From the NCBI RefSeq assembly GCF_933775445.1, contig NC_065874.1, positions 7,645,001 to 7,709,000 on the forward strand: 64,000 nt of DNA, in the 5' to 3' direction. Each line of letters begins with the position of its first letter. Within the stretch, counting starts at the first letter, position 1. This document shows, in pieces, positions 14,351-61,853 of this stretch. The DNA is from Argentina anserina (Eukaryota; Streptophyta; Magnoliopsida; Rosales; Rosaceae). Below the pieces are notes generated by a model, which was not told the DNA's origin, searched no databases, and was given only the letters and a program-made list of their open reading frames with translations. The translations under genes were made by a program, and so were the position numbers.

Positions 14351-14354
14351 ATGA
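14238..14354 (+). other. upstream ORF (38 codons) overlapping the PPR start codon
   Basis: An ATG at 14238 opens a 38-aa frame with no internal stop. It contains a second in-frame ATG at 14331 and ends in TGA at 14352-14354. That stop overlaps the PPR start codon at 14351 in an ATGA. The TATA box at 14151 would put both upstream ATGs on the mRNA. The peptide (MQKSQFLNPRFPRPK...) has no family that I recognise. The stop/start overlap suggests regulation by reinitiation or leaky scanning rather than a peptide function. Confidence 0.5.
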
Positions 14355-16669
14355 ACCTACTCCGCCCCATCTACTACTTCATCCCCAAACCCCCATGGCG
14401 GCGCCGCTACTCCACCACCCAACCTGACCCCATTGACCTCCTCACCGTCCTCGACAAATCCGACGGCGCAGAATCCCTTGTCTCCCATCTCTCCAATCCC
14501 AAGCTCATCTCTTTAATCAAGCAAAACCAGACCAACCCACAAGTGGCCTTCCGCCTCTTCATCTGGGCCACCCAAAGATCCCACCTTTGCGCCACAAAAT
14601 GCCGCTCTGCAGTCATTGACATGCTCCTCAGGGACCAAAGCGCGTTCGAGATGTACTGGAGGACGATGCAGGAGATGAAAGATTACGGAGTTGGGATCGG
14701 GTGTGGCGCTTTTAGTGTGCTGATCAGAGGGTATGATAAGATGGGCATTGCCGAGAAGGCGGTGGAGGCTTTCACAAGGATGAAGGAGTTTGATTGTAAG
14801 GCTGATGTTTTTACTTACAATGAGGTTTTGTATGTTTTGGTGAGGAAAGAAGTGTTTTTGTTAGCTTTAGGTGTGTATAATCAGATGTTGAAGTGTAATG
14901 TTAGTCCCAATAGGAATACTTATAGCATTTTGATTAATGGGTTTTGCAAGACTAGGAAAACCCAGGATGCATTGCAGATGTTTGATGAGATGACTAGTAG
15001 AGGGATTGCGCCGAATACTGTTACTTATACTATTGTCATTTCGGGGCTGTGTCATGCGAAGAGGGTGCATGAGGCGCATAGGCTGGTTGATACAATGAAG
15101 GAGAAAGGGTGTGTTCCGGATTTGATTACGTACCATGCTTTGCTTGATGGGTATTGTAAGTTGGGCAGGCTTGATGAGGCGTACGCGCTTGTGAGATCGT
15201 TTGTGAGGGATGGTTATGTTCTTGGGATAGAGGGATATAGTTCCTTGATTTATGGGCTGTTTAGAGGTAGGAGTTTTGATGAGGCGCTTGGGTGGTATGG
15301 CAAAATGATTAGTGAGGGGATTAAGCCGGATGTTATCTTGTGTACTATATTGATTAAGGGGCTAGCGGATGGTGGCAGGGTTAAGGATGCATTGAAGTTC
15401 TTGGGTGAGATGAGTGAGAATGGTTTGGTTCCAGATGCGTACTGTTATAGTGCTGTAATTAAAGGGTTCTGCGATTTAGGTCTTCTGGATGAAGCTCGGT
15501 CGCTCTATCTTGAGATTTCGGAGCAATATGGTTTTCCCAATGCCTGCACTTACACCATTCTCATTTGTGGTATGTGCAGGAACGGGCTGGTTGGGGAGGC
15601 AGAACAGATATTCAATGAGATGGAGAAGGTTGGATGTGTTCCTTCTGTTGTGACCTTCAATGCTCTTATTGATGGGCTTTGCAAGGCTTCTCAGCTTAAG
15701 GATGCACAAATGCTGTTTTACAAAATGGAGATAGGAAAAAAGCCCTCATTATTTCTTCGTCTTTCTCAAGGTAGTGATCGGGTTATTGATAGTGCAAGTC
15801 TTCAAAAGAAGGTGGAGCAATTGTGCGAGTCAGGATCAATTCTTCAGGCCTATAAGCTTCTGATGCAGCTAGCTAGTAGTGGGGTTGCCCCCGACGTCAT
15901 CACTTACAACACTCTAATTAATGGGTTTTGTAAAAATGGAAACATAGACAGTGCTTTTAAACTCTTCAAGGATATGCAATTCAAAGGGATCAACCCAGAT
16001 TCTGTTACATATGGAACACTTATCGATGGACTTCAAAGGATTGAAAGAGAAGAAGATGCCTTCGTGGTCTTTAATCACATGGTGAAAAATGGATGCACAC
16101 CTAACTTTGAAGTTTACAAATCACTGATGACCTGGTCTTGCCGGAATAGGAAGGTTTCATTAGCTTTCAGTCTTTGGTTGAAGTACCTGAGCAGCCTTCC
16201 TCACAGAAAAGAGGAAGCAATCAAAGCAATAGAGGAAAACTTCAAGGAAGGGAAAATTGAGAAGGCGATCCAAGGTTTACTTAAAATGGATGAAGAGTCG
16301 AAACATTTGGATTTAGGACCATACACTATTTTGCTCATTGGTTTGTGTCAAGTGCAAAGAGTGGATGAAGCTCTGAGAATGTTCTCTGTACTTCAGGAGT
16401 ACAAAGTCAATGTCACTCCACCAAGTTGTGTGCACCTGATAAATGGTCTCTGCAGAGAAGGGAATTTGGACCTTGCAATAAATGTCTTCCATTATACTCT
16501 GGGGAGGGGTTTCATATTAATGCCCGAAATATGCAATAAGCTGCTCAAGTGTCTTCTTCGTTCCCGAGACAAAAAGGGCCATGCCTTTGATCTCGTTCGC
16601 AAAATGAGAAATTTTGGATATGATCTTGATGCATGTCTTCACCAGACTACAAAATTACTCCTACAGTGA
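14351..16669 (+). CDS. P-class pentatricopeptide repeat protein, organelle-targeted
   Basis: A single exon encodes 772 aa from the ATG at 14351 (MNLLRPIYYF). The N terminus is rich in Arg, with an RRRYSTT segment and few acidic residues, so an organelle (probably mitochondrial) presequence is likely. From about residue 110 onward, 35-residue PPR motifs follow each other, for example TYSILINGFCKTRKTQDALQ, TYTIVISGLCHAKRVHEAHR, TYHALLDGYCKLGRLDEAYA, TFNALIDGLCKASQLKDAQM and TYNTLINGFCKNGNIDSAFK. All are canonical P-type repeats. A non-canonical spacer around residues 465-500 breaks the array and further degenerate repeats follow. There is no E, DYW or SMR tail, so RNA stabilisation, processing or translation in an organelle is more likely than C-to-U editing. 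It resembles the Arabidopsis At1g79540-type protein from memory (uncertain). The RNA target is unknown. Confidence 0.92.
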   Translation: MNLLRPIYYFIPKPPWRRRYSTTQPDPIDLLTVLDKSDGAESLVSHLSNPKLISLIKQNQTNPQVAFRLFIWATQRSHLCATKCRSAVIDMLLRDQSAFEMYWRTMQEMKDYGVGIGCGAFSVLIRGYDKMGIAEKAVEAFTRMKEFDCKADVFTYNEVLYVLVRKEVFLLALGVYNQMLKCNVSPNRNTYSILINGFCKTRKTQDALQMFDEMTSRGIAPNTVTYTIVISGLCHAKRVHEAHRLVDTMKEKGCVPDLITYHALLDGYCKLGRLDEAYALVRSFVRDGYVLGIEGYSSLIYGLFRGRSFDEALGWYGKMISEGIKPDVILCTILIKGLADGGRVKDALKFLGEMSENGLVPDAYCYSAVIKGFCDLGLLDEARSLYLEISEQYGFPNACTYTILICGMCRNGLVGEAEQIFNEMEKVGCVPSVVTFNALIDGLCKASQLKDAQMLFYKMEIGKKPSLFLRLSQGSDRVIDSASLQKKVEQLCESGSILQAYKLLMQLASSGVAPDVITYNTLINGFCKNGNIDSAFKLFKDMQFKGINPDSVTYGTLIDGLQRIEREEDAFVVFNHMVKNGCTPNFEVYKSLMTWSCRNRKVSLAFSLWLKYLSSLPHRKEEAIKAIEENFKEGKIEKAIQGLLKMDEESKHLDLGPYTILLIGLCQVQRVDEALRMFSVLQEYKVNVTPPSCVHLINGLCREGNLDLAINVFHYTLGRGFILMPEICNKLLKCLLRSRDKKGHAFDLVRKMRNFGYDLDACLHQTTKLLLQ

Positions 16670-18116
16670 CGATAGATTGTGATGGAATTGGTAATTTTTG
16701 TTTTGGTCGTGGCTGACATTAAGGAGCTACTTGATCTTTGATTCACAAATGACAACAATTCTTGGCTAGCCTCAGGCTTGTCCGATGATTGAACTTTGGC
16801 CGGTGAACTTCATGATTCACTTCTTCAACAGTTCAATGTGAGTTTACTGTCAGGAAATTGTTTTAGAACAAAGAGCTTGTTGCACAATCTGAAACCCCCT
16901 TCCATCAAACCTTGTATTTTTCACTGGTGTTGATGCACAGGAGGGTTGCTGTAGATTTTTTCACACTGCCAGAAAAATAAGTAGGAGAATGCTCCTTATG
17001 AAGTGGATGACATGGATCATTGTCTATGCATCCCAATTTTTTGTAAGTTATATAGTTGATACCCTGTAACAATACCGACTTGAGAAACTGGAAGGTCATT
17101 TTTCCTTTCATTTTGACAAAGAGCTACTTCTGAGTTTGTATTTGCATGGTGCGCTGTATGTCAGAAAACAGTGGAAACACAGTTTTGATTGCTGAAATGT
17201 TTTGGTCATTAGCAATACTGACCTCAGTACATGAAGAAACATACTGGTAGGCATGATTTAAGCGAATGGAGCCAGTCAATTTCTGTAGTTGGTCACCAGG
17301 CCCATACGAGGTGGGAGGCATGATTTATTGAAGATTGGTCTCCTAATAAAGTTTCTCAATGCACTCTCCTAGTCTTTGTAGAAGGGCTCAACAAGGACCA
17401 TTTTTTCCCTGACAAGTATCCTCAGTAGAGGCGTGGATCCTACAGCATCATAGGATTCTCATCCAGCCAAAAACTACATTCCATGAAAATTTACTAGTAC
17501 ACGATGAGCTATACTCTGTACGTCTAATTCGGGCACTTTTTTCTGGCACCCAGTTAATGCAAATAATCTTCAAAGTTTTATATAGGTATTCCCCTTAATA
17601 CAGTCCATTGTTTGTGGCTTGTTTTGGTTGTTGAGGAATTCGGTTTAGTCCCCCATCTGTCTGTATCTTTTTTCTTAAGAAATTATTACGGTATCTGGTT
17701 TCAGCTAAAAACAAATGGCATAGCATCATGACATGCATTTTGAGCTGTTCTCACTAGTCATAGCTGGTGTGTGTCATCAACAAGGTCTGGAAATGGAACT
17801 CTCCTAAAGTTTTACGTTTCAAATTCTTTTACTTCTTTCCTCCTCTCATTGGAAATCACATGCATGATCCATTAATACCAACCTAACCACCCCACAAGCT
17901 TTGGATTACTCGTCTTCTTCTCATAAATGTGTTTATACCAAACAGACTAACTATTTCTTGAAAACCAAAATCTGTTTAACTTGCAGTAATACTAAACGAG
18001 CTAAGCCAGCCGGAAGAAGATTCAAAACTCATGGTTCTATGCTTTCTCTCTATAATCTCATACGTTTTTCCAGTGAAGACCTGATACAGTACACCTTCCT
18101 ATGAGATTGGCCGGCA
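16670..18116. other. intergenic, no gene recognised
   Basis: This stretch contains the 3' region of the PPR gene and the promoter of the next gene. Open frames are short and unlike known proteins. An out-of-frame ATG at 18101, 16 bases before the chimeric gene's start, opens a 28-codon frame that ends at 18187 inside exon 1. Confidence 0.6.
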
Positions 18117-21100
18117 ATGTGGAGCTCTCGCGCTCCGTTTGTTGTTTCTCTTTTTCTGCTTCACTTGGTAGCTCTGGTCTCAGCTGATCAAAGCTCAACC
18201 AGTAATCAGTGGGAAACACTCAATGGTAAAAGATATATGTAATCTGATCTGTTTTTAACTCTCTGTGTTTGAGAATGTTGATTTTGCCACCTTTGCATGT
18301 TATGTAAATTTCTTGGTAGTGGAGAATGGAGGAGACTGGAAATCTTTTCCAGTTTCGTTGAAGGTTTTTTGCAATTGGTTCCCAAATACGAAAATGAGAA
18401 CAATAGAAAGGAGTTGTTCAATAAAAGAGTGTATATATATACACATTTTTTTACAGCAGTTCACTATATTTAAGTTATCCGTAAATTTTTTTCATTGTAA
18501 AATTTCAGAAACAAGCAAATTTTTCTTGAAAGATTGTACAATTTCCAGTGGTTATAAATAATCCGAAATATCTGGGTTTGGTTGCCTATGTTTGGAATTC
18601 AGATTTTTTTGGTAAAATGTTTGTATTCAACAATCGATGACCATTCTGTAAACGAATCTAAGACATTTGATACATGGATAAGTACTTTTAAAGCTGTTCT
18701 TGTCTTTACCGAGCAACAATGGCAACAATTTTCCCCACAGTATGGCTAATGTGGTTAACTGGATTGATTCGATTTTCAGGCAAGCCGCCTGTGGTCATAG
18801 CACACGGGGGATTTTCAGGACTATTCCCTGGTTCTACTGAAGTGGCATATGAATTCACATTGTCCACGAGTGTATCAGATGTGTTATTTTGGTGTGACGT
18901 CCAACTGACCAAGGAAGGAGCTGGAATTTGCTTTCCGGATCTGCTACTGAATAACAATTCTGATGTTAAAGTTATGTATCCAGAGAGGGTCAAGAATTAC
19001 ACAGTTAATGGAGCTCCTACCAGTGGATGGTTTACCATTGATTATACTCTCAAGGACCTTGCACATGTTTATGGTGAGTAGCATCTTATTTGAATCAACC
19101 AATGGAATAGGAAATTCGGTTTTAGATTGTTGCTTATTCATTGAAGTACATAAATGAGTTGTGGAATTGACACATTATAAACTGATTGCTAGACATTACT
19201 TCATGCTTTTGGTGTTTATAGACCAGTTTTTAGTCAAGGTCTGATTGTGGAAATTGCTCACCAATTTCTTGTTACATAAACAGTTACGCAAGGAGTATAT
19301 ACCCAAGCTGAAAGGTATGATGGAAACGGGTACCGAATTATCACTGTTGAATATGTGGCTCTGAAATTGAAACCACCAGGCTTATGGTTGAACATTGAGG
19401 TAACTGGTCAACTACAAATCATATGTGATCAAATACTTTGATTTTTAAGACTATTCATTCAACTATAGTCTCACAAAACCTGAAATTTTTAATGCTTTTG
19501 CAGAAAAATATTTTCTTCTCACAACACAACCTGAGTATGAGAAACTTTGTGCATTCTGTAATGAGGAAAGTGGCTGTCAATTACATCTCATCACCAGAGG
19601 TGGCTTTCCTGAACAGCATTAAAGGAGCTGTTAGTCCAAGAACTACTAAGCTGGTCTTTCGCTTTCTGGGACTATCTCAGATTGAGCCTTCAACCAATCA
19701 AACTTATGGATCTCTGTTAAATAATCTCACATTTGTCAAGACCTTTGCCTCAGGAATTCTAGTTCCTAAATCTTACATATGGCCTGTCACTAAAGACAAT
19801 TATTTGGAACCACACACTTCACTTGTTGTGGATGCTCATAAAGCAAAACTTGCAGTGTTTGCTTCCGACATGATGAATGATGCAGCATTACCCTACAATT
19901 ACAGTTATGATCCATTAGCTGAGTACCTGTCATTCATCGACAACAAAAATTTCACTGTTGATGGTGTCATGTCTGACTTTCCAATCACTCCATCAGCAGC
20001 CATAGGTAATCTATTTTCTTGCCGAGTTTCTTGTCATAAAATAGTGTTAAGCTATTTACTGTACTTTTTCTGTAGATAGTTCTCCTTTACTGATTTATAC
20101 AATGTCGATCAACTACGTTGCAGTTACAGTGAATGATGAGATGAAATTCCAGGAATTGCACATCAATGCATCAAATCCTAAGGAACTAAGAGTGAAGTGG
20201 TCAGACTTCCCCAGTGATTTCGTATTTGGAGTCAGCACTGCTGCTGCACAGGTTATTTTTGTAATTCTGGAACATTTATGGTTTCCGACTTTTTGTACAT
20301 GGAAATGCTAATTATATATGTGCGGTTATACGTTGCAGATTGAAGGATCAGCAAACAAAGCAGGACGAGGACCAAGTGTTTGGGATCAGTATGTTAAGAT
20401 ATTTCCAGGTTCGTTTCTAAAATAGCCTTAGATTCTAGTTTTTTGCAGTAGTTTTGCCCTACCAACAATATATCATGCTCATTATAATCCTTTTCTCCAT
20501 CACTTTCCTTTCTATTTAGAAAGAATTGCTGACCGTTCTACCATGTCAACAACAATCAATTCTTACAAGCGATACAAGGTTAGATGAGAGCTAGCTAGCC
20601 GTTACTTATATTTCCATTAATATTCATTATACATAAATCAAGCCTTTTTTTTAGTCCATTATATTGACTGGCAAGTATTTGTTCGTAATGGCAGGAAGAT
20701 GTGAAGGCAATAAAAGCCCTTGGAGTTGATTCTTATAGATTTTCCATCTCTTGGACTAGGCTTCTCCCGAGTAAGCTTTTTATCTATTTATCGTCCCCAA
20801 ATGAAAGTTCAGATGATCTATGTGTTATGGTTTAATAGGTTAATCAAAACTTTTGATGTGTAGAGGGAACTTTGAGTGGAGGAATAAACCAAAAGGGTAT
20901 TGATCACTACAACAACTTGATTGATGAACTAATCAAGAATGGTAAGAACCTATTTCTCATATACCGTTGTTTCCACGTATACTAATGTCCCTTTTCTCTC
21001 ATTAGGAAATAGCTCATATACATGCTATTCCTTCTGTTGGTTTTAGAAATTTACATTGATGAGATTTTAATGCAGGCATCACACCATATGTAACCATATT

Positions 21101-22748
21101 ACATTTTGATGCTCCACAAGCCTTGACAGTGAAGTACGGAGGCATTCTCAATCGGTCATTTGTGTAAGTTCTTCCACTCTTTTTAATCAAAATTTCTAAC
21201 CAATATTGCTCCACAAGACTGAGTGTTTCTATTCATTATCACTTTTGCTCAGGAATGATTTTAAGGATTACAGTGAACTTTGCTTTAAGAACTATGGAGA
21301 TAGAGTCAAAAATTGGATTACAATCAACGAGCCTTTTATTATAGCTGAAATGGGTTATGATCTTGGGGTTGCTGCACCAGGGCGGTGTTCTGTACCAGGC
21401 GGCCCTTTCAATTATTGCACAGCTGGAAATTCATCTACTGAACCTTACATTGTGGCTCATAACCTTCTCCTTGCCCATGCCACTGTTGTTAAGCTCTATA
21501 GAGAAAAGTTTCAAGTGAGTTAAACTTTTCACCTTGGTAACATTAATTTCGTAAGTTTTTGGATGACATATATAATTATGAGACTTCATATGCAGCGCTG
21601 AAATGTTTCTCATTATTTTGCATATTATAGAAAACACAAGGTGGACAAATTGGATGGAGTCTTGTAGGTTCGTATGTTGAGCCTTATTCAAATTCAGCAA
21701 AGGACAAAGCTGCAGCTAAAAGAATATTGGACTTTGAAATTGGATGGTTAGTCACATACTCCGATCCCTATGATCCTCAGTTCACCTGCTTATTGATTTT
21801 GCAAAAAATCTCCTTGATTACTATAAATCATTCTCCCTACTAATATATATATATGGTGTTTCTTTTTACTAGGTTCATGGAACCAATAGTGTATGGACAT
21901 TATCCAAAGAGTATGAGGCGCTTGGTCAAGAAAAGGCTCCCCTGTTTTACCAAAGAAGAGAAGAAACTGATTAAGGGATCCTTCGATTTCATCGGCATCA
22001 ACTATTACACCTCCAGATTTGGTAGAAACATTCAAGCACATTCACATATGCCACGCCTCGCCCGCAATGATTCTTTAGCGTCATCAGAGCTTAATAGTAG
22101 GCTTCAATACTTCATACTACCTTTTATATTTTCTGTGTTGTTTGTTCATGTTTTCTTAACTTCTTCGCATATGATGGTTGCAGATGACAAAGGACTCCAA
22201 ATTGGTCCTAAGGTAAGAGATATATTACCTGAAAATTTTGACATTTTCTTTAGATAAATATAGGATTACTTATTCATGCTGATTACCTCGCAGGCTGGTG
22301 CCAGCATATACATCTATTCTTATCCACAAGGTCTCAAGAAACTTTTGAAGTTCATGAAGCGAAAATACCAGAGTCCTAAGATCTACATTTCCGAAAATGG
22401 AATAACAGAAGCAAAGAACAATAAGCATGGCCTCGGTGCAGCACTGAAGGACCCACATAGAATTGAATGTATTCTTCGGCATTTGTACATGATCAAGCAT
22501 GGCATAAAGTAACGATCCATCTACCCAGATTTTTTGTTTTTGAACTGAATTAAATTTGAATCAACCAATTCATTTACGTACCCTTGTCATTCTTGTTTTG
22601 CAGGAAGGGTGTGAATGTCAAAGGATATTTCCACTGGGCTCTATTCGATGACTATAAAAACAATCTCAAGCGCATTCCGAAAGAATCTGCAAGGTGGCTC
22701 CCTAAATTCCTCAAGGGCGAGGATGCTTCGTATGAAAAGTTATACTAG
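18117..22748 (+). CDS. chimeric protein: GDPDL (SHV3-type) N-terminal domain fused to GH1 beta-glucosidase
   Basis: Sixteen exons join in frame to 836 aa: 18117-18225, 18780-19073, 19284-19399, 19504-20005, 20124-20251, 20339-20408, 20520-20578, 20695-20770, 20864-20941, 21076-21163, 21253-21514, 21631-21746, 21873-22096, 22184-22212, 22294-22508, 22604-22748. All introns are GT-AG and every phase agrees. Residues 1-25 form a signal peptide. Residues 30-340 match the first GDPD domain of GDPDL/SHV3-like wall proteins: [85 protein letters not shown]. Canonical GDPD catalytic His-Arg and Glu positions are degenerate, as is usual for this first domain. GH1 follows: [32 protein letters not shown], acid/base TINEP, nucleophile YISENGIT, and a C terminus cut by a 17-codon deletion that removes the FEW..RFG segment. 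GDPDL domain 2 and its GPI signal are absent. A secreted or wall protein is likely; glucosidase activity is doubtful. An alternative is two transcripts, with GH1 starting at an ATG at 20102. Confidence 0.8.
20006..20123 (+). other. fusion-junction intron (phase 1) joining GDPDL and GH1 parts
   Basis: This 118-base GT-AG intron lies between the GDPDL-type exon (ending ATA G) and the GH1-type exon (starting TT ACA GTG), so the join reads through as Ile-Val-Thr-Val. The last 35 bases, from ACTGATTTATACAA at 20089, match the end of intron 1 in the sister GH1 gene (from 49488). The sequence before that does not match. The chimera breakpoint is therefore visible inside this intron. Confidence 0.75.
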
Positions 22749-23149
22749 ATATAAACCGTAGTCTTAAACTATGCAGGGGGGAGTTGTACTGTTAAAGGGG
22801 AAAATTGTTAGAGAAACAATCATTGTTATACACGTTTTATAGGCACTCGTACGTTTATGTGTCGGTGATATCGATCGAGTTAGAAAATCTAAATTGCTTG
22901 GGAAAAGAAAGTAGGGCAATGAAGTATCTTGCACTTGGATTAATTTGATGTCTATTTTCAGCGTTCAGAATTCAGATCAATGTAGCGAGATATATGAATA
23001 TATTGTTCTATATGATCCCTAATGGCCTATCACATTTTCCTATCGTAATATTCGTATAACGTATCTATGTGATATATTGGAAGAATCTAAGTGGATTGAC
23101 AGCTAAGAGTTCATGATACGATTTATTCTTTGTTGCGATGGGTTGTTGC

Positions 23150-28616: not shown

Positions 28617-30162
28617 TGATCGGCTCGATTACTCGACATCAATATTAACTATATAAGCATCGTTAGTAGTATAAAGCAAGAGGGTATCGTTCACAAACCG
28701 GGGATCCAACCAGGGCAAAAAATCACAAACATTTTCACATAGAGATTTAAAAATTTGAGATAAGTTTCAGATAAAAAACAGAATATAAAACCTAAACTAA
28801 TATATACATGTGATCAACCAACCAACACACAAACCATTACCAAAACAATTCATATAAACATAACGAAAACAAGTTCTAGTCCTCCTCTAAGATTCATGCC
28901 GAGACACTGTCATGAATAACTAAGGTTGGATCATGTAATTAGGGTTCTAAGCAGTAACCTAAACACATAAACACGTAACACGTTTGACTCTTACGAAGCA
29001 GTCTTAATCGAAATCTAACATACTCATCCTACCATGTAAATTCCAACGCCATGCATAATGAATTCATTAAGCATGTCACCTACTTAACCAACAATCATGC
29101 AATTTCGAAACTTACATAGAAAAGAACAAACATGTTCATAACATAAGACTTTAATCCAACAACCTAAATATCATGCTACAATCGTATACATAACACATAG
29201 ATATCGAAATCATTCAAAAACATGTCACGGCAGAAATCTAAATTAATAAAATCAAAAACTATAAATCGCAACTTTATATAAATCGAATCAAGTAGCTATT
29301 TCATAGACAAAATCGAAACAAGTTTACAATACATAAATCACATACATAACCAAGAACAAGAAAAACCAAAAACCCGAAATTAACATAGAGAGAATCATAG
29401 TTACACTTTATTAATCAAGCGATCCTACAAGGTGTAGCCGTGGCTTTCTAAGGGAATTGACTTCTTCACAAGTGTGCTTCGAAGCTAGGGAATGATGGAA
29501 GGATGATGGAATCGGTTTTAGGATTTCTGAATTGGTGAGTATGAAATTCGGTAGAGCTTTGGCTAGTATGTGCGCAAGGTTGATGATCCTTAAACAATGA
29601 GGCCGTGTCTCTATATATAGGAGTCAAAAACATAGCCTTGCCGTCCCAAATAGGAGATAAAATCGGATTGGGAAGTTGAAATCTTCTTTGATATGGACTT
29701 TAATTCATGTACTCCAAATCCAACTTGATGTAGGAAACCAAATCTAATTGGGAAACAATTAAGGGTTGCACGTCATCTCTCATTCTTCAACTAGGAAATA
29801 GCTAGGCCGGCTTCTTCTGTCCTTATCAAACTCGGATATGATCTCCTTGTGTCACTAGGAATGCATTACGACACCACTACTCCTTGTCCATATGATTTGT
29901 CTTTCCAGAAAAAAAAATCGACGATTAAGGAATAGGAAAGAATGAAAATAGGAAAGTAGAATCCTAGTCGAATAAGGAATCATAGCGCAATAAGGATTTC
30001 TAACACTTAGCACGATTTCATCATCAAAACATCCAAATTCGGCATAGCTCTACTAAAACATACAAATAACAAATATGAACCTAAAACAACTAAATAAGAA
30101 GAAACAAAGCATACGAATATGACATATATACATTAAGAACGTCACACTTTGTGCTCCTATCA
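28617..30162 (-). repeat. 3' LTR of the Athila-type element
   Basis: This 1,546-base LTR starts TGATCGGCTCG on the plus strand and ends TCCTATCA. It aligns along its whole length with the copy at 38182-39713, with scattered substitutions and some small indels (for example TTTAACAATGAATTCAC against TTTTCAC). The element is therefore not very recent. Confidence 0.9.
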
Positions 30163-38181: not shown

Positions 38182-39713
38182 TGATTGGCTCGATTACTTT
38201 ACATCAATTTTAACCATGTAAGCATCATTAGTAGTAAAAAGCAAGAGGGTATCGTTCACAAACCGGGGATCCAACCACGGCAAAGAATCACAAACATTTA
38301 ACAATGAATTCACATAGAGATTTAAAAATTTGAGATAAGTTTCAGATCAAAAATAGAAAATAAAACCTAAACTAATATATACATGTGATCAACCAACCAA
38401 CACACAAACCATTACAAAAAAAATTCATATAAAGATAACGAAAACAAGTTCTAGTCCTCCTCTAAGATTCATGCCGAGACACTGTCATGAATAACTAAGG
38501 TTGGATCATGCAATTAGAGTTCTAAGCAGTAACCTAAACACATAAACACGTAACATGTTCGACTCTTACGAAACGGTCTTAATCGAAATCTAACATACTC
38601 ATCCTACCATGTAAATTCCAACGCCATGCATAATGAATTCATTAAGCATGTCACCTACTTAACCAACAATCATGCAATTTCGAAACTTACATAGAAAAGA
38701 AAAAACATGTTCATAACATAAGTCTTTAATCCAACAACCTAAATATCATGCTACAATCATATACATAACACATAGATATCGAAATCATTCAAAGACATGT
38801 CACGGCAGAAATCTAAATTCATAAAACCAAAAACTATAAATGGGAACTTTATATAAATCGAATCAAGTAGCTATTTCATAGACAAAATCGAAACAAGTTT
38901 ACAATACATAAATCACATACACAACTAAAAACAAGAAAAACCAAAACCTGAAATTAACATAGAGAGAATCATGGTTACACTTTATCAATCAAGCGATCCT
39001 ACAAGGTGTATCCGTGGCTTTCTAAGGGAATGAACTTCTTCACAAGCGTGCTTCAAAGCTAGGGAATGATGGAAGGATGATGGAATCAATTTTAGGATTT
39101 CTGAATTGGTGAGTATGAAATTTAGTAGAGCTTTGGCTAGTATGTGCGCAAGGTTGATGATCATTGAACAATGAGGTCGTGCCTCTATATATAGGAGTCA
39201 AAAACATAGCCTTGTTGTCCTAACTAGGAGATAGAATTAGATTGGGAAGTTGAAATCTTCTTTCATATGGGCTTTGATTCGTGTACTCCAAATCCAACTT
39301 GATGTAAGAAACCGAATCCAATTGGGAAACAATTAAGGGTTGCACGACATCTCTCCTTCAACTAGGAAGTAGCTAGTCCGGCCTCTTCTCTCCTTATCCA
39401 ACTCAGACATGATCTCCTTGTCTCACTAAGAACTCCATGTCTCACTAAGAATGCATCACGGCACCACTACTCCTTGTCCAAATAGGATTTGTCTTTCCTG
39501 AAAATAAATTGACGATAAAGGATTAGGAAAGAATGAAAATAGGAAAGTAGAATCCTAATCGAGTAAGGAATCATAACTCAATAAGGATTTCTAACATGGC
39601 TATACTAAAACATACAAATAAAAATATGAACCTAAAACAACTAAATAAGAAGTAACAAAGCATAAGAATATGACATGTATACATTAAGAACGTCACACTT
39701 TGTTCTCCTATCC
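38182..39713 (-). repeat. 5' LTR of the Athila-type element
   Basis: This 1,532-base LTR (TGATTGGCTCG to CTCCTATCC on the plus strand) lies next to the primer site. The terminal CA is mutated to CC. It is followed directly by the target duplication CTTTC. A TATATATAGG stretch near 39186-39195 could be the promoter TATA box of the minus-strand element. Confidence 0.88.
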
Positions 39714-49030: not shown

Positions 49031-52000
49031 ATGATCATGGAGTTTTCACACCCATGGTTGAGGATGATGTGCGTTATTGCTTTTATTGCCTGTTTTTCAG
49101 AAGGTATGTTAACCAAACTTAATAGTACATTTGTTCGTTAGTAATCTTGACGTACATAAAGCTAGGTTGCATCAAGCTTAAGGAAATTTGCATTTTCTCT
49201 ACATGCAATATATCAACTATATGTATATATTGAACTATAGAAGTTGTAAAGTGTTATTGATTATTTTAATTTTTCAGAGACAATTGTCCAAAACTTATGC
49301 AGAACCTGAAGATAAATCATCCAACTAGTAATAGTCCTTTTTACTTTCATAATTCAAGGAAAGCATAAAATTGCATTGCCAAAAAAAGAAAGAAAAGGAA
49401 AGCATAAAATTGGAATATTTTTGTTGTTGTAATAAAATCCATGATGGTGGAATGAATTAAGCAAGTGTTTTAAAAATAGATCAAGGAACTGATTTATACA
49501 ACGTCGATCAACTACGTTGCAGTTACAGTGAATGCTGAGATGCAATTCCAGGAATTGCACAACAATGCATCAAACCCTAAGGAACTAAGAGTGAAGTGGT
49601 CCGACTTCCCTAGTGATTTTGTATTTGGAGTCAGCACTGCTGCTGCACAGGTTCATTTTTGTAATTCTAATATTCGATAGTAACTTCAACATATAAGGTT
49701 TCCATCTTTTTGTTCATGGAAATGTTAATTATATATGTGCGGTTATACGTTACAGATTGAAGGATCAGCAAATAAAGCAGGACGAGGACCAAGTGTTTGG
49801 GACGAGTTTGTTAAGATATTTCCAGGTTCGTTTGTAAATTAGCCTTAGATTCTAGTTTTTTGCAGTAGTTTTGCCCTACCAATGATATATCGTGCTCATT
49901 ATAATCCTTTTGTCCATCACTTTCCTTTGTATTCAGAAAGAATTGTTGACCGTTCTACCATGTCAACAACAATCGATTCGTACAAGCGATACAAGGTTAG
50001 ACGAGAGAGCTAGCTAGCTGTTACATATATTTTCCCATCCAATATTCATAGTACGCCACTATTTAATTTGATTAGTCAACTATTAAAATTAAAATCTAGT
50101 TTAATTACATTAATTGAAGATTTGTTTAGTAATTTTAGCAGTTTTCGTCAACTCATCAATATTGCTAGAATTCATGAAGTTACTATACGTATATATATCA
50201 TATATCACCCAAAGTTTTATGAATTAAATAACGATGTCAAACTAACTTTCGGGCAATTTAAAGTTCTCCTTAAAGTTCTTAATTATCTTTAAGTGTAGTT
50301 GTTTTTTTTTTTAAAACTCATTACTTCAGATGTTGTTACCTTCAACATTTTACACTAACCTAATTCAAAGGTAGGTATCAATTAAAAATAAATCTTCAAA
50401 ATATAAAACTTATGTTCTTAAAGGTGCTAATAGAGTTTACTTAACTTACAACTTATATGTTAGGCGCGTTGGTTTATATGATATATCTACATGCTCAATA
50501 AAAATATACAAAAATACCTAAAACAAAAATACTTGCAATAGAAATGATAAAAGAAATCAATTTCAAGAATAACATACCTTACTAGTAGATACCAAAGAGA
50601 CTGTAGACATAGATGTGCATACACAAGTTCACAACAAACATATCAATTTAAATTTCTTCCTCTTTGCATTGATTCAAAGGAAATGAATTATTTGTATCAA
50701 CATTGTACAATTTAGAGTTTGACTAAATATAAAGGTTTTTCAATGCAAATTTGACATGAATGTTTGCACAAATCAATTAGGCCATAAATCACATATGCAG
50801 TTGCATTCTAAAGGGAATGTTGCCTACGTGGATTAGGTATAAATTAAAAGAAAAAAATATGTGTGGGTTTCTTTTCATGGCTTGTCTAGAAAATTGGTTT
50901 TTAATAAAATTTTCTCTTTTTTTTTTAGTCCATTATATTGACCGGCAAGTATCTGTTCGTAATGGCAGGAAGATGTGAAGGCAATAAAAGCCCTTGGAGT
51001 TGATTCTTATAGATTTTCCATCTCTTGGACTAGACTTCTCCCGAGTAAGCTTTTTATCTATTTATCGTTCCCAAATGAAAGTTCAGATGATCTATGTGTT
51101 ATGGTTTAATAGGTTAATATCAAAACTTTTGATATGTAGAGGGAACTTTGAGTGGAGGAATAAACCAAAAAGGTATTGATCACTACAACAACTTGATTGA
51201 TGAACTAATCAAGAATGGTAAGAACCTATTTCTCATATACCGTTGTTTCCACGTATACTAATGTCCCTTTTCTCTCATTAGGAAATAGCTCATACACATA
51301 CTATTCCTTCTGTTGGTTTTAGAAATTTACATTGATGAAATTTCAATGCAGGCATCACACCATATGTAACCATATTACATTTTGATGCTCCACAAGCCTT
51401 GACAGTGAAGTACGGAGGCATTCTCAATCGGTCATTTGTGTAAGTTCTTCCACTCTTTTTAATCAAAATTTCTAACCAATATTGCTCCACAAGACTGAGT
51501 GTTTCTATTCATTATCACTTTTGCTCAGGAATGATTTTAAGGATTACAGTGAACTTTGCTTTAAGATCTATGGAGATAGAGTCAAAAATTGGATTACAAT
51601 CAACGAGCCTTTTGTTATAGCCAAAATGGGTTATGATCTTGGGGTTGCTCCACCAGGCAGGTGTTCTAAACCAGGCGGCCCTATCGATTATTGCGCAGCT
51701 GGAAATTCATCTACTGAACCTTACGTTGTGGCTCATAACCTTCTCCTTGCCCATGCCATTGTTTTTAAGCTCTATAGAGAGAAGTTTCAAGTGGGTTAAA
51801 CTCTTCAGCTTGGTAACATTAATTTCATAAGATTTAGGATGACATATATAATTATGAGACTTCATATGCAGCGCTGAAATGTTTCTCATTATTTTGCGTA
51901 TTATAGAAAATACAAGGTGGACAAATTGGATGGAGCCTTCGAGGTTCGTATGTTGAGCCTTATTCAAATTCAGCAAAGGACAAAGCTGCAGCTAAAAGAA

Positions 52001-53072
52001 TATTGGACTTTGAAATTGGATGGTTTATCAACATATTCCCTATGATCCTGAATTCACCTGCTTATTGATTTAGCAAAAAGTCTCCTTGATTACTATACAT
52101 CATTCTCCCTACTAAATATATATATGGTGTTTCTTTTTAATAGGTTCATGGAACCAATAGTATATGGACATTATCCAAAGAGTATGAGGCGCTTGGTCAA
52201 GAAAAGGCTCCCCTGTTTTACCAAAGAAGAGAATAAACTGATTAAGGGATCCTTCGATTTCATCGGCGTCAACTATTACACCTCCAGATTTGGTAGAAAC
52301 ATTCAAGCACATTCACATATGCCACGCCTCGCCCGCAATGATTCTTTAGCGTCATCAGAGCTTAATAGTAGGCTTCAATACTTCATACTACCTCTTTTAT
52401 ATGTTCTGTGTTTTTTGTGCATGTTTTCTTTACTTCTTCGCGTATGATGGTTGCAGATGACAAAGGACTCCAAATTGGTCCTAAGGTAAAAGATATATTA
52501 CCTGAAAATTTTGACATTTTCTTTAGATAAATATAGGATTACTTATTCATGCTGATTACCTCGCAGGCTGGTGCCAGCATATACATCTATTCTTATCCAC
52601 AAGGTCTCAAGAAACTTTTGAAGTTCCTGAAGCGAAAATACCAGAGTCCTAAGATCTACATTTCCGAAAATGGAATAACAGAAGCAAAGAACAATAAGCA
52701 TGGCCTCGATGCAGCACTGAAGGACCCACATAGAATTGAATGTATTCTTCGGCATTTGTACATGATCAAGCATGCCATAAAGTAACGATCCATCTACCCA
52801 GATTTTTTGTTTTTGCACTGAATTAAATTTGAATCAACCAATTCATTTACGTACCCTTGTCATTCTTGTTTTGCAGGAAGGGTGTGAATGTCAAAGGATA
52901 TTTCCACTGGGCTCTATTCGATGACTTTGAGTGGGGAGAAGGCTATAACGTAAGGTTCGGGCTTTACTATATCGACTATAAAAACAATCTCAAGCGCATT
53001 CCGAAAGAATCTGCAAAGTGGCTTCCTAAATTCCTCAAGGGCGAGGATGCTTCATACGACAAGTTATCTTGA
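49031..53072 (+). CDS. GH1 beta-glucosidase-like protein with signal peptide
   Basis: Thirteen exons join in frame to 537 aa: 49031-49103, 49523-49650, 49756-49825, 49937-49995, 50969-51044, 51140-51217, 51352-51439, 51529-51790, 51907-52022, 52144-52367, 52457-52485, 52567-52781, 52877-53072. All introns are GT-AG with consistent phases. Exon 1 encodes a short hydrophobic signal peptide ([20 protein letters not shown]). GH1 landmarks follow in order: [38 protein letters not shown] (usually HWD.PQ), acid/base Glu in [16 protein letters not shown], nucleophile Glu in YISENGIT, and the glucose-binding segment [20 protein letters not shown]. All residues for a retaining beta-glucosidase are therefore present. 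The substrate cannot be read from sequence; plant GH1 enzymes hydrolyse glucosides of phenolics, hormones or wall oligomers in vacuole, ER or apoplast. It is the sister of the chimeric gene at 18.1 kb. A large transposon-like insertion sits in intron 4, with splice sites kept. Confidence 0.88.
50053..50910. mobile_element. insertion of about 850 bp in intron 4 of the sister GH1 gene
   Basis: The matching intron in the chimeric gene is 116 bases, here it is 973. Homology stops near 50050 and resumes at about 50910, a TTTTTTTAGTCCATTATATTG-like block. The extra sequence is AT-rich and non-coding. It starts with GCCACTATTTAATTTGATTAG, which resembles a block in the element at 43.3-44.4 kb, and its inverted end GAAACCCACACATA resembles that element's terminus. 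Confidence 0.6.
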
Positions 53073-54071
53073 TATTATCCCTAGTTCCAAACTATGCATG
53101 GGGGAGTTGTACTGTTACATGGGAAAATTGTTAGAGAACCAATCCTTGTTATACACGTTTTATAGGACTCGTACGCTTATGTGTTCATGATATCGATCGA
53201 GTTAGAAAATGTACATTGCTTGGTAAAAGGAAGTAGGGTAATGAAGTATCTGCAATTAGATAAATTTGTTGTCTACTTTCAACGTTCAAAATTCAGATCA
53301 ATGTAGCGAGAAATATGAATGTACAATTCTATATGATCCTAATGGCCTATCACATTTTCCTATCGTAATATTCATATAACATATCTATGTGATATATAGA
53401 AAGAATCTGAGTGGAATGATACGACTTATTCTTTGTTGCGATGGGTTCAAGCTTCTGGAGAGGTTTTTTATTTATTTAGAAAAATGAAATATATATCACC
53501 AAAAAGATTACAATAAAATAACACTCGGTGGTGGAACTAAATTCCCCACACTCCGTCCAACTAGTACTACCAATCACATGACTATCCCAAGAAGCAATAT
53601 ACATGAGTCATGAAGGTCCAATTCTGAACCAATCGAATTTGATTCCAAAAGTAGCCGATAACATAATCGTCGTTAATCACAAGTAGAGAACTGCTCCAAT
53701 AGCACCACATACCAAAACCTTTAGTATATTTGCAAAGACAACCTCCCCAATACATTGACACCCAGAAATAACCGACTTTTAGATAATCCTGGAAATGACA
53801 TGTACCATAAACGTGTGCACTCAACAACATAACCAAACTTTACCTATTGACAACCTAAACCCTTGCTCAAAGATGATGGAAGATAAAAGAAAAACTAAAT
53901 TAAACAGACCTGGGCCAAAGACCCAAGCTCACCTACACAAAGCAACTAATTGACCCATCATAGGCCCAAATGAGCCTAGGCCCATGTCCAAAGAACCGCA
54001 GGATGTGACCGCCGCCTAGTGCAATCGACATGTGTCGCCTAAAACTTATGGAGAGTTTGGCTCTACTCATT
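53073..54071. other. 3' flank of GH1 gene and intergenic sequence
   Basis: Up to about 53449 it matches the sequence downstream of the chimeric copy (22749-23150), which marks the end of the duplication. From 53450 to 54071 is unrelated sequence with no gene that I recognise. Confidence 0.55.
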
Positions 54072-54388
54072 TGTAATAACCCTCGTTTTCAAACATTATT
54101 TGAATTGAATTAAATTCTATTAAGTTGTGAAGTTTGATTTAAACCGAACATGATTGCTTGCAAATGTTACGAAACGGGAACGGAAACGTTCCGAGAACGT
54201 TTAATAAGAAAACGTTACGTTTCCGAATGAATTTATCGACTTTTACTTCGTCGCTCGGTTGTGAAAACTTTCTTCACGGAAGTTGTAGAGCTCGTCGATA
54301 CGAGTTCGTGGATATGTGACGCGTTCGAAACGGACGTTGGAGGTAAAAGTTATTAACGTCGGAAGTTAGTTTCCGATTTGGAAACTAG

Positions 54389-54396
54389 TATAAATA
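54389..54396 (+). promoter_or_regulatory. TATA box of the chromovirus LTR
   Basis: TATAAATA, followed about 30 bases later by AGGGTTTCC, the likely start of the U5-side leader. The same box is kept in the 3' LTR (near 62171) and in the solo LTR (near 45495). Confidence 0.6.
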
Positions 54397-55380
54397 GGTA
54401 ATTATAGGATTAGGGTTTCCTTAATCAGAAACCCTCATCTCACTTCTCTCTCTCTCAACCCGCCGCACTCTCTTCTCTCTCACCCTCGGATCGCTCTCTC
54501 TCTCCCGAAACCCCATCTTCCTCTCCTTCGCAACCCGAGCTCTCTCCCATCTTCCTCTCCTTCACGATCGAACACTCTCACCTCTTCCCGAGCTCTCTCT
54601 CCCTCACCCTCGGATCGCTCTCTCCCCGAAACACTCCCACCCTCACCTCGAAGAATTGCCCGGCGATCTCCCACACAGGGCTGCCGTGACGTGCACCGCT
54701 CGACTCAACCACGTCGCGAGGACCACAGCTGCCACCCTTCAGCTCGCCTGCTCGAGACTCGCCGCCGTGAGGACGCCCGACGTTGCCAAGCTTCTGCAAG
54801 TTTCGGCAACGATCTTCATCGCCACCATCGAGCTCCAAACGAGCTTTCCATCATCAAATTGAGGTGAGATACGTGCTAGGATGGATTGTGTGTTTGTTGA
54901 GTGATGTTTTTGGTTGATTTGGGAGGTTGTTGGTGGAGATCGGAGGGAGAGATGGGAGGGGAGGTTACCGCCGCTTTAGGCGGCGCGTGAGGTTAGTAGG
55001 AGGGGGTACGAGGCGGCGTTAGGCCGCGGGGAGGAGGAGGAAGAAGAAAAGGAGAAGAATGGGGCGGCGGTGGCATCACACGCGCCTTGGTTGGCGTCGG
55101 CGCGTGGGCCCCACGCGCGGCCGGCCGGAGGTGGCGCGTGTGCCACACGCGCCGCCGGGTGAGGCGGTGTAATTAGTTTTGACTGAAAGGGTATTTTGGT
55201 AATTTACTGTGTAACGGTAAATGTAAATGTAAATTTTATTTACTACGGTAAATGTAATTAATTTTTACCTTCAGTAAAATGTAATTATAAATTACTTTCA
55301 GTAAATGTAAAAAGTAATTTGTAAAAGGGTAATTTAGTAAATTTTATTTACTGAGTTGTATTTACATTTAAATCGTACGT

Positions 55381-57046: not shown

Positions 57047-57319
57047 TAAGTGCGTATTTGGCGATTATCAATATCATCCGGGAGCGATGATCCGACTGCA
57101 GGCGGGCCCCCATCACATGCTCCTCGGTATTGATATGTCGTCGGGTACGCGAGAGTGTTTTAGGAGCCATACCTAATGGTTTGGTCCTCCGAGAAGTATC
57201 GTGATGATACTTCGATGATTCATCATATCCTGAAATTTCATGTTAATACCTATTGAATCTGTTTTAGTTGAATTCGAGATTTCACAAGTATTGACTAAGT
57301 GTTTCGTTGTTTGAAGGTG

Positions 57320-60300
57320 ATGAACGCTGATAAGGGCCGAGGACAGGGCCGAGGACGGGCGAGAGGACGTGGTCGAGGTAGGACCACGGGCCGAGTCCGC
57401 AACGTGGAGAATCTTTATGAGGAGGCTGCTCCACAGGTAGAGCGGGTAGGCCGAGGTCGAGGTAGGGCCACAGGTCGAGTCCGCAACGTGGAGAACCTCT
57501 ATGAGGAGGCTGCTCCGCAGGAGGAGCAGGATGAGCCAGCTCCTGTGGTTAGAGATGACGGTCGAGTGTTGAAGCTGATCAAGGATATTAGTGCACTGTC
57601 AGCTCCGACATTTCATGGGGGACTAGATCATATGGTAGCTGACCATTGGATCGAGGGTATGGAGACTTATTTTGAGATGATAGAGTGCAAAGAGATTGAG
57701 AAGAGAAAGATAGCTACATTCTTTCTCAAGGGTGATGCTCTAGATTGGTGGAAGAGCATGAGACAGACTGTGGATGTGTCTACATTCACATGGGGAGATT
57801 TCACCACCATATTCCAAGAGAAGTATTTTCCAGCCTCAGTACAGGAGGACTTAGAGTTGGAGTTTCTGGCATTGGTACAGGGAGACATGACCATTAGAGA
57901 GTATGATGCTCGATTCTCGCAACTGTATCGGTATGTCAGGCCTATGGGTGCGACTGCTTTAGCTCAGAAGTATCTACGTGGGCTGAAACGAGAGTACAAG
58001 ACCATGATATCAGTCCTTTGCCTGACTTCACGGGAGCAGATATTTGAGAGTGCTATGAGCTTGGAGCAAGCAGAGAAGACTCAAGCAGGTGATGTGGGGA
58101 ACAAAGATGCAAAGGGGAAAGGCAAGGCAGTCTATACAGGCAGCGAGCACTCAGGGCCGAAGGATAGGTCATGGAAGAGGCCAAGACCCCACTATCAGGC
58201 CCCGACAAGGGCGCCACCCCTAGCTATCAGAGCAGCACCAGTCAGACCATTAGCAGCAGTGAGGTGTTATAGCTGCAATGAGATGGGACATTACGCCTCA
58301 GCATGTCCGAAACCGAAGAGAACAGGCTGCCACCGGTGCGGGCAAGTGGGACACATAGCTCGAGATTGTACCCGACCACTTCCGGGTAGACAGGAACGGC
58401 CGCAGAGACAGCTACCAGCGGGCCAAGCTAGAGTGTTCGCAGTGGGTCAACGAGACACAGGGGTGGAAGGTACATTATCACTTTTTGACTACCTTGCTAG
58501 AGTGTTGTTTGATACGGGAGCATCGCATTCATTCATTGCTAGTTCAGTAGTGGAGATGCTAGGATTGATCCCTACACCTCTCGGGGACGCCTTATGTGTC
58601 ACTTCACCCCTTGGAGTGTCACTTGAGTTAGAGACAATCTGCAAAGCTTGTCCTATATTGATTGGAAGTAGAGAGTTCTCTGCTTCGTTGATTGTGATTC
58701 CGGACCACACTTATGATGTGATCTTGGGGATTGATTGGTTGAGACCACAGCATGCTGTGATTGATTGTTTTGACATGGTAGTGTCCTTTCATAGACCCGG
58801 AGAGCCAGTGTTTCGTTATCGTTGTCTCAAGTCGGATAACGCCATGAGATCAGGAATTTTGGCACACGTGGAGTCAGTGGATCAGAAAGTGACTATCGCA
58901 GACATTGTGGTAGTATCTGAGTTTGGTGAAGTGTTCCAAGAGATACCGGGGCTACCTCCTCGAAGAGTGGTAGATTTCTGCATTGATGTAGTACCCGGTA
59001 CAGCACCTGTGTCAAAGGCGCCATATAGAATGGGGCAGAATGAACTTAAGGAGCTGAAGGTGCAGATCGATGAGCTATTAGACCAAAGGTTCATTAGACC
59101 TAGTGTTTCACCTTGGGGAGCACCTGTTTTGTTCGTGAAGAAGAAAGATGGTTCTCTGCGGTTATGTGTGGACTACAGAGAACTGAACAAGGTGACCATC
59201 AAGAATAGGTATCCCTTACCTAGGATTGATGACTTGTTCGATCAGCTCAAAGGTGCTACAGTGTTCTCTAAGATTGATTTGAGATCCGGTTATCATCAAC
59301 TCAGAGTGAAGGAAGAAGATATATCGAAGACAGCATTCAGGACCCGGTATGGACATTATGAGTTTGTCGTCATGCCATTTGGTCTAACGAATGCACCAGC
59401 TGTCTTCATGAGTTTGATGAACCAAGTATTTAGCCCGTACTTGGATGAGTTTGTTGTGGTGTTTGTGGATGACATTCTGATATACTCCAAGACACAAGAA
59501 GAACATGTGGTGCATCTGAGAACAGTGTTGCAGACCTTGAAGGAGGCGAGATTGTATGCCAAGCTAGAGAAGTGTGAGTTCTGGAAAGAAGAGGTCAAAT
59601 TCCTTGGTCATGTTGTCTCAAAAGATGGAGTACTAGTGGACCCAGCAAAGGTAGAGGCAGTAAAGAATTGGAGTCGTCCAAAGAACCCTACAGAGATACG
59701 TAGTTTCCTCGGGTTGGCAGGTTACTACAGGAGGTTTATCGAGGGGTTTTCTAGTATCGCATCTTCATTGACCAAGTTGACCAAGAAAGATACTCCGTTT
59801 GTGTGGACGGATGCATGTGAGGAAGCATTCAACAAACTAAAGACTAGACTGACCACAGCTCCAGTGTTGACGATTCCCTCTAGTGGTGGTGGCTATGTCA
59901 TTTACAGTGATGCTTCACTCCAGGGTTTGGGTTGTGTGTTGATGCAGCATGGAGGAGTCGTTGCATATGGCTCGAGACAGTTGAAGATTCATGAGAAGAA
60001 TTATCCGACACACGACCTAGAGCTTGCGGCAGTTGTATTTGCCCTGAAGATTTGGAGACATTACTTGTATGGTGAGAAATTTCAACTCTTCTCAGATCAT
60101 AAGAGTTTGAAGTACTTATTCTCACAGAAGGAGCTGAATATGAGGCAGAGGAGGTGGATGGAACTCCTCAAGGACTATGACTTCACTTTAGAGTACCACC
60201 CGGGAAAGGCAAATGTGGTGGCTGATGCCTTGAGCAGAAAACCGAGAGGCGTAGTAGCTTCACTTATGGTCCAGGAATGGTTCATGCTAGAAGCTGCATC

Positions 60301-61840: not shown

Positions 61841-61853
61841 AAGGGGGGTAGAT
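61841..61853 (+). other. polypurine tract of the chromovirus element
   Basis: AAGGGGGGTAGAT directly precedes the 3' LTR, preceded by the lineage-typical CGGGACGAAATTCC stretch. It primes plus-strand synthesis. Confidence 0.9.

What the first reader, a model, noticed from the sequence alone, without database searches (positions are those of the whole stretch)
18117..22748. In-frame fusion of a GDPDL (SHV3-type) domain with a GH1 beta-glucosidase
Sixteen exons with matching phases give one 836-aa frame. It starts with a signal peptide and the first GDPD domain of a GDPDL wall protein and continues as a GH1 beta-glucosidase. I know of no described plant protein with this architecture, although I cannot search. 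SHV3-type GDPDL proteins act at the cell wall and GH1 enzymes act on glucosides, so the chimera could bring a glucoside-binding module to the wall or give a new secreted protein. All splice sites are canonical, and no frameshift or stop was found in any of the 16 exons.
Basis: partly seen in the sequence, partly recalled or inferred. Interest (0 to 1): 0.88.

Follow-up and report, generated by a model that had tools for sequence, protein, structure and literature searches.

The report
Silverweed GDPDL–beta-glucosidase fusion gene
In the silverweed genome, the front half of a cell-wall protein gene has been joined in frame, through introns, to a partial copy of a neighbouring beta-glucosidase gene; the fusion is real and looks young, its enzyme half looks disabled, and whether it is expressed is not known.

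Summary
Observation confirmed: the 16 exons of 18117-22748 give one 836-aa frame, GT-AG throughout, no internal stop. The window is Argentina (Potentilla) anserina chromosome 3. The fusion is a DNA-level exon shuffle. Exons 1-4 are the 5' half of a GDPDL gene; the rest is a partial duplicate of the intact GH1 gene at 49037-53072. Homology starts inside GH1 intron 1, 35 bp before its native acceptor, so the GH1 signal-peptide exon is missing and its phase-1 acceptor faces the GDPDL phase-1 donor. A second in-frame acceptor (20075) gives 852 aa. The GH1 half lost 51 bp, removing the FEW...GLYY segment with the glucose-binding Glu/Trp; both catalytic Glu remain, but it is probably inactive. The second GDPD domain and GPI-anchor end are absent. 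The GDPDL half carries about 3 to 3.7 times as many lineage-specific changes as its strawberry counterpart; the GH1 half is not faster than the intact copy. None of the 240 database proteins retrieved (best 120 of two searches) holds both halves. Transcription is untested. Verdict: a real chimeric gene of doubtful function.

The parts
18117..22748 (+). Chimeric gene, 16 exons, 836 aa (GDPDL N-terminal half + GH1)
   Evidence: rebuilt, 15 of 15 introns GT-AG, no internal stop
18117..18225 (+). Exon 1 (GDPDL): start codon and signal-peptide-like N-terminus
   Evidence: hydrophobic core, mean Kyte-Doolittle 2.67 over 11 residues from residue 8
18780..19073 (+). Exon 2 (GDPDL)
19284..19399 (+). 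Exon 3 (GDPDL)
19504..20005 (+). Exon 4 (GDPDL), ends phase 1 after SAAI, where four relatives read SAAI-Asp
   Evidence: (P0043, P0047, P0051, P0094)
20006..20123 (+). Fusion intron; the last 35 bp (20089-20123) match GH1 intron 1 of the intact copy, the rest does not
20070..20075 (+). Alternative in-frame acceptor CTGTAG, probably the former GDPDL intron-4 acceptor (restores Ile-Asp); 852-aa product
   Evidence: origin inferred
20089..23144 (+). Partial segmental duplicate of the intact GH1 gene (pairs with 49488-53447), introns included
20102..20104 (+). In-frame ATG giving a leaderless 503-aa GH1 if the halves are separate
20124..20251 (+). Exon 5 (GH1 exon 2), native phase-1 acceptor
20339..20408 (+). 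Exon 6 (GH1)
20520..20578 (+). Exon 7 (GH1)
20695..20770 (+). Exon 8 (GH1)
20864..20941 (+). Exon 9 (GH1)
21076..21163 (+). Exon 10 (GH1)
21253..21514 (+). Exon 11 (GH1), acid/base Glu in TINEP (residue 533)
21631..21746 (+). Exon 12 (GH1)
21873..22096 (+). Exon 13 (GH1)
22184..22212 (+). Exon 14 (GH1)
22294..22508 (+). Exon 15 (GH1), nucleophile Glu in ISENG (residue 751)
22604..22748 (+). Exon 16 (GH1), with the 51-bp deletion after 22649
49037..53072 (+). Intact GH1 copy, 13 exons, 535 aa with its own signal-peptide exon 49037-49103; database protein P0003 equals its residues 29-535
52923..52973 (+). The 51 bp of the intact copy that are absent from the fusion; a GACT repeat marks the two deletion ends
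14351..16666 (+). Upstream neighbour: PPR gene (At1g79540-like, open over 772 aa), used as chromosome marker

Best explanation
It is a chimeric gene made by DNA-level exon shuffling. A partial duplicate of a GH1 beta-glucosidase gene, lacking promoter and signal-peptide exon, became joined to the 5' half of a GDPDL gene on A. anserina chromosome 3. The right breakpoint is inside GH1 intron 1, the left one in or just after GDPDL intron 4. Both native junctions are phase 1, so transcription from the GDPDL promoter plus ordinary splicing would give one secreted protein: GDPD-like domain 1 followed by GH1. A 51-bp deletion between GACT repeats removed the conserved FEW...GLYY segment that follows barrel strand 8. 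The product is therefore most likely a soluble protein without glucosidase activity, from a gene that is either young and tolerated or drifting towards a pseudogene. Shown: exons, phases, duplication, right breakpoint, deletion. Inferred: promoter use, splicing in the plant, secretion, loss of activity, order of events. The confidence given is for origin and anatomy; the first two rivals concern what became of the gene and do not exclude this origin.
For: Frame and splice sites. Homology to the intact copy starts at 20089/49488 inside GH1 intron 1 and runs about 400 bp past the stop, introns included. The GH1 exon 1/exon 2 junction is phase 1 in the intact copy. Exon 4 ends after the Ile that is followed by Asp in four of four GDPDL relatives read there. 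No GDPDL second half was found in the window. The deletion covers E461, G465 and G471 of P0003, invariant in 20 of 20 aligned GH1 proteins; E440 and W441 of rice Os3BGlu7, matched by motif and spacing, bind the glucose analogue (PMC7356692, passages read). GDPDL half: 32 fusion-only against 9 Fragaria-only changes, p 0.00033.
Against: There is no transcript evidence either way. The left breakpoint is not fixed, because no intact GDPDL DNA of a relative was available. In Pyrus the PPR and GDPDL contigs differ, and in peach their locus tags are far apart, so GH1 as newcomer rests on chromosome-level hints. The GH1 half does not look like a simple pseudogene: 10 amino-acid changes assigned to it against 14 to the intact copy, dN/dS 0.43-0.54, no frameshift inside the ORF. 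Uneven intron divergence allows gene conversion, which would blur these rates. The deleted segment has only moderate model confidence (mean pLDDT 62 for residues 461-470).
Confidence: 0.75

Rival explanations
1. Two broken neighbours: a truncated GDPDL pseudogene and a leaderless GH1 pseudogene that lie in frame by coincidence and are never spliced together.
For: Each half lacks parts it needs: GDPDL second domain and anchor, GH1 promoter, signal peptide and 17 residues. The GDPDL half has extra changes. Reading on through intron 4 meets a stop at 20077-20079.
Against: No stop, frameshift or lost splice site in 16 exons. Two acceptors, both in frame. Between the two GH1 copies, noncoding DNA carries 14 gaps in 1547 aligned sites; the exons carry two in 1489, one of 51 bp in frame and one of 1 bp beside the stop codon.
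Confidence: 0.4
2. Functional secreted pseudoenzyme: the fusion is expressed and kept by selection for a non-catalytic task at the wall, as GH1-like Klotho proteins act as non-catalytic receptors (that role is recalled; Klotho chains are among the GH1 hits).
For: Open frame. About 10-14 amino-acid changes in the GH1 half against about 34 expected at half the mean intron divergence (the 1117 sites are my estimate, 0.75 x 1489, not a computed count).
Against: The constraint may predate the fusion or come from gene conversion; the GDPDL half carries extra changes; no expression data.
Confidence: 0.2
3. Assembly or haplotype-collapse artefact that joins two loci.
For: The sequenced plant is tetraploid, and curation reduced the assembly length by 48.31% (PMC11162522, passages read).
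Against: Assembly from 36-fold HiFi reads. The fusion copy differs from the intact copy (48 of 1489 exon and 71 of 1165 intron sites), so it is not a misplaced piece of it. One HiFi read would be expected to span the joint (inference).
Confidence: 0.05

Closest known systems
SHV3/GDPDL3 family (GDPD-like, GPI-anchored wall proteins; PMC6726743, passages read)
   Same: Signal-peptide-like start and first GDPD-like domain; groups with Fragaria vesca GDPDL3-like P0051 (FastTree support 0.951)
   Different: No second GDPD domain, no GPI-anchor end; longer branch (0.158 against 0.057); the Arg of ARGG, present in 12 of 12 aligned relatives, is His
SNC4/GDPDL2 (GDPDL ectodomain on a receptor-like kinase; PMC9603095, passages read)
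   Same: A GDPDL module joined to an unrelated domain
   Different: The partner is GH1, not a kinase; only one GDPD-like domain
Rosaceae beta-glucosidase 24-like GH1 (P0003, P0005, P0008)
   Same: Exons 2-13 of the 13-exon intact copy are present; catalytic Glu pair kept
   Different: No signal-peptide exon of its own; 17 residues with the glycone-binding Glu/Trp lost
Plant fusion genes formed by duplication then fusion (Oryza, Zhou et al. 2022, PMC9199173; abstract, passages and section 10 read)
   Same: A duplicated copy of one parent fused to a second gene; introns kept (their type II is the nearest pattern)
   Different: Other species and genes; whether an intact GDPDL parent survives, and whether the gene is expressed, is not shown here

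Membership tests
GDPDL (SHV3-like) | Signal peptide | tested here: met
   Hydrophobic N-terminus aligned with GDPDL relatives; hydropathy only, no dedicated predictor
GDPDL (SHV3-like) | First GDPD-like domain | tested here: met
   273 of 329 aligned residues identical to P0051. Against: Pfam 17.2 bits is below its cut-off; in P0051 itself the best Pfam stretch is the second domain
GDPDL (SHV3-like) | Second GDPD-like domain | tested here: not met
   tblastn of P0043, P0047, P0051 and P0094 finds no second half in the window; their second-half matches are cross-matches to the first domain or weak short stretches
GDPDL (SHV3-like) | C-terminal GPI-anchor signal | tested here: not met
   Last 40 residues hydrophilic (best 11-residue mean -0.35); no dedicated predictor
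GH1 beta-glucosidase | GH1 domain | tested here: met
   434.8 bits, reaching profile position 413 of 453; intact copy protein P0003 494.1 bits, reaching 448
GH1 beta-glucosidase | Catalytic acid/base and nucleophile Glu (NEP, ENG; motifs recalled) | tested here: met
   Glu at residues 533 and 751; the matching E187 and E405 of P0003 are invariant in 20 of 20 proteins
GH1 beta-glucosidase | Glycone-binding Glu/Trp after strand 8 (FEW) | tested here: not met
   Removed by the 51-bp deletion; in the P0003 model the segment follows strand 448-454 (pLDDT 62 for 461-470)
GH1 beta-glucosidase | Hydrolytic activity | not testable with these tools
   Needs an enzyme assay
Fusion gene by duplicate plus neighbour (type II of PMC9199173) | One parent duplicated and still present, introns kept | tested here: met
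   Intact GH1 at 49037-53072
Fusion gene by duplicate plus neighbour (type II of PMC9199173) | Other parent has no intact copy left in the genome | tested here: inconclusive
   The only A. anserina GDPDL among the 120 hits listed is P0094, which groups with P0089/P0090, not with P0051; 90% clustering may hide others; the search of the own genome did not complete
Expressed fusion gene | Transcript across the junction | not testable with these tools
   No reads available here

The most novel reading that the evidence does not exclude
In A. anserina the fusion has replaced the species' only GDPDL gene of the Fragaria-P0051 group and now makes a secreted GDPD/GH1 pseudoenzyme under GDPDL control, kept by selection: a GH1 barrel recruited as a non-catalytic wall module.
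Probability: 0.15. Interest if true: 0.6.

Novelty: new variant of a known kind. Interest (0 to 1): 0.36.

Why it matters
None of 240 retrieved proteins holds both halves, and two paper searches for this pair gave nothing on such a fusion (three papers held the terms, seen as listing only; none; open-licence PMC papers only). The case is unusually readable: the intact GH1 parent, the breakpoint inside its intron and the matching intron phases all lie in one 64-kb window. If it is expressed, it tests directly whether a phase-matched exon shuffle gives a working plant protein or an open frame in decay. Fusion genes as such are common in plants (310 in four Oryza species, PMC9199173, abstract), so the kind is ordinary.

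Tried and rejected
Separate-GH1 reading: an ATG at 20102 opens a 503-aa leaderless GH1, but it lies in former intron 1 and the GH1 promoter and first exon are missing, so I rank it below transcription from the GDPDL side.

Retroposition: rejected, introns are kept in the duplicate.

The same fusion elsewhere: precomputed Pfam lists cannot settle this, since the fusion's own GDPD match is below the Pfam cut-off. I therefore compared both halves with all 240 proteins retrieved: 161 match only the GDPDL half, 79 only the GH1 half, none both. The long GH1 proteins P0001, P0002, P0004, P0035, P0056 and others hold two or more GH1 stretches. Limits: one search found 1534 proteins and one search found 265, only the best 120 of each were seen; the database is clustered at 90%.

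Selection tests: dN and dS between the copies are 0.0253 and 0.0589 (NG86), 0.0267 and 0.0494 (YN00), after dropping 17 gapped codons and the last two codons. Of 28 amino-acid differences, 10 were assigned to the fusion, 14 to the intact copy and 4 left open, by which state is commoner among six relatives; 10 to 14 is not significant (p 0.41). The Poisson comparison (p 8.6e-5) uses an estimated site number and the mean intron rate; intron divergence is uneven (chi-square p 7.5e-7, or 0.00053 without the poorly aligned intron 20579-20694), so I give it little weight.

One search used a wrong end for the first exon of the intact copy and gave a false stop; one search corrected it. The bacterial promoter scan of 17900-18130 found nothing and means little in a plant. 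A PDB search with P0051 gave only three weak matches to GDPD-type entries. A paper search with GDPDL and Rosaceae gave no paper. The question whether an intact GDPDL or an unfused second subgenome copy exists stayed open, as the genome search did not complete.
Full report
WHAT IS THERE. Residues 368-807 are a GH1 domain (434.8 bits); the GDPD match at 75-333 is weak (17.2 bits, cut-off 23.6). Residues 1-340 nevertheless align along their length with GDPDL3-like proteins, best with Fragaria vesca P0051 (273 of 329 aligned residues identical).

WHERE IT IS. The intact GH1 gene of the window encodes, from residue 29 on, exactly the database protein P0003 of Argentina anserina, on a contig of 35,144,299 bases; the PPR protein of the window is listed on a contig of the same length. 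The published assembly of Potentilla anserina (the former name of the species) has a chromosome 3 of 35.14 Mb (PMC11162522, passages read).

HOW IT AROSE. A second, complete GH1 gene lies at 49037-53072: 13 exons, 535 aa, with its own signal-peptide exon. DNA homology pairs 20089-20627 with 49488-50049 (89.5% identical) and 20645-23144 with 50919-53447 (92.7%), introns included. It begins inside GH1 intron 1, 35 bp before the native acceptor. In the intact gene this intron is phase 1. GDPDL exon 4 also ends in phase 1, after an Ile that is followed by Asp in the four GDPDL proteins I read there (P0043, P0047, P0051, P0094). So the donor of one gene meets the acceptor of the other in frame. A second acceptor, CTGTAG at 20070-20075, would rebuild this Asp and also stays in frame (852 aa). 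It is probably the old GDPDL acceptor, which would put the left breakpoint at about 20076-20088; this is inference, as no intact GDPDL DNA was available. No second GDPDL half was found elsewhere in the window.

WHICH PARENT MOVED. The GH1 relatives of Rosa (49,737,312 and 70,290,800) and peach (47,851,208; PRUPE_1G525400) lie on others. Against a simple picture: in a Pyrus hybrid the PPR (29,912,832) and GDPDL (25,000,400) contigs differ, and in peach the PPR and GDPDL locus tags are far apart (4G124200, 4G228400). The evidence suggests that GH1 is the newcomer, at chromosome level only.

WHAT WAS LOST. The last exon of the fusion lacks 51 bp of the intact copy, between two GACT repeats. The lost residues include E461, G465 and G471 of P0003, invariant in 20 of 20 aligned proteins, and W462, nearly invariant. 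E440 and W441 of rice Os3BGlu7 hydrogen-bond the glucose analogue in the -1 subsite (PMC7356692, passages read); I matched them to E461 and W462 by motif and by the spacing to W433 (W454 in P0003). In the model of P0003 (mean pLDDT 84; 62 for residues 461-470) the segment follows the strand at 448-454. TINEP and ISENG remain. The second GDPD domain and an anchor-like C-terminus are absent.

HOW IT EVOLVES. GDPDL half: 32 changes on the fusion side against 9 on the Fragaria side with Rosa P0043 as outgroup (327 sites, p 0.00033), 33:9 with Rosa P0047 (329 sites, p 0.00021), 26:9 with Prunus P0072 (327 sites, p 0.0041). GH1 half: 10 changes against 14 for the intact copy, 4 open (p 0.41), dN/dS 0.43 or 0.54. 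Divergence between the copies is 48 of 1489 exon sites, 71 of 1165 intron sites and 42 of 382 sites of 3' flank; gaps 2, 9 and 5. The exons thus look constrained, but intron divergence is patchy, the two copies may have exchanged sequence, and the constraint may predate the fusion. The one A. anserina GDPDL among the hits listed, P0094, groups with P0089 and P0090 rather than with P0051, so the fusion may stand in place of the species' P0051-type GDPDL; the clustering of the database leaves this open.

HOW RARE. Both halves were compared with the 240 proteins retrieved: 161 match only the GDPDL half, 79 only the GH1 half, none both. A paper search for GDPDL, beta-glucosidase and fusion gave three papers, seen as listing only, none about such a gene by title or abstract start; one with glycerophosphodiester phosphodiesterase, beta-glucosidase and chimeric gene gave none.

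READING. This is a confirmed chimeric gene, made by a known route (duplicate one parent, fuse it to a neighbour; PMC9199173, section 10 read), with a domain pair I did not find elsewhere. The most likely product is soluble, secreted and not an active glucosidase. Whether it is transcribed is the open question. Leaf RNA-seq exists but could not be reached here. The species is tetraploid, with subgenomes estimated to have separated from A. lineata about 4.1 and 4.8 million years ago (PMC12320355, passages read), so the second subgenome and A. lineata are the natural places to look for the unfused state.

Noticed in passing
49037-53072: The database protein P0003 of the intact GH1 gene starts in its second exon and misses the signal-peptide exon 49037-49103; the full gene codes for 535 aa.
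   Followed up: yes
57299-61813, repeats 54071-54736 and 61853-62497: Gag-pol-like ORF of 1504 aa between direct repeats 96.5% identical: probably a young LTR retrotransposon close to the intact GH1 gene (Ty3/gypsy type by eye).
   Followed up: no
28617-30161 and 38182-39712: Direct repeats of about 1.55 kb, 89.4% identical, enclosing short retroelement-like ORFs on the minus strand: probably an older LTR element between the two GH1 copies (by eye).
   Followed up: no
20771-21252 against 51045-51528: Introns here differ at 6 of 316 sites against 46 of 733 in the other introns (intron 20579-20694 left out): a possible gene-conversion tract between the GH1 copies.
   Followed up: partly
50050-50918: The intact GH1 copy has about 850 bp in its third intron counted from exon 2 that the fusion lacks.
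   Followed up: no
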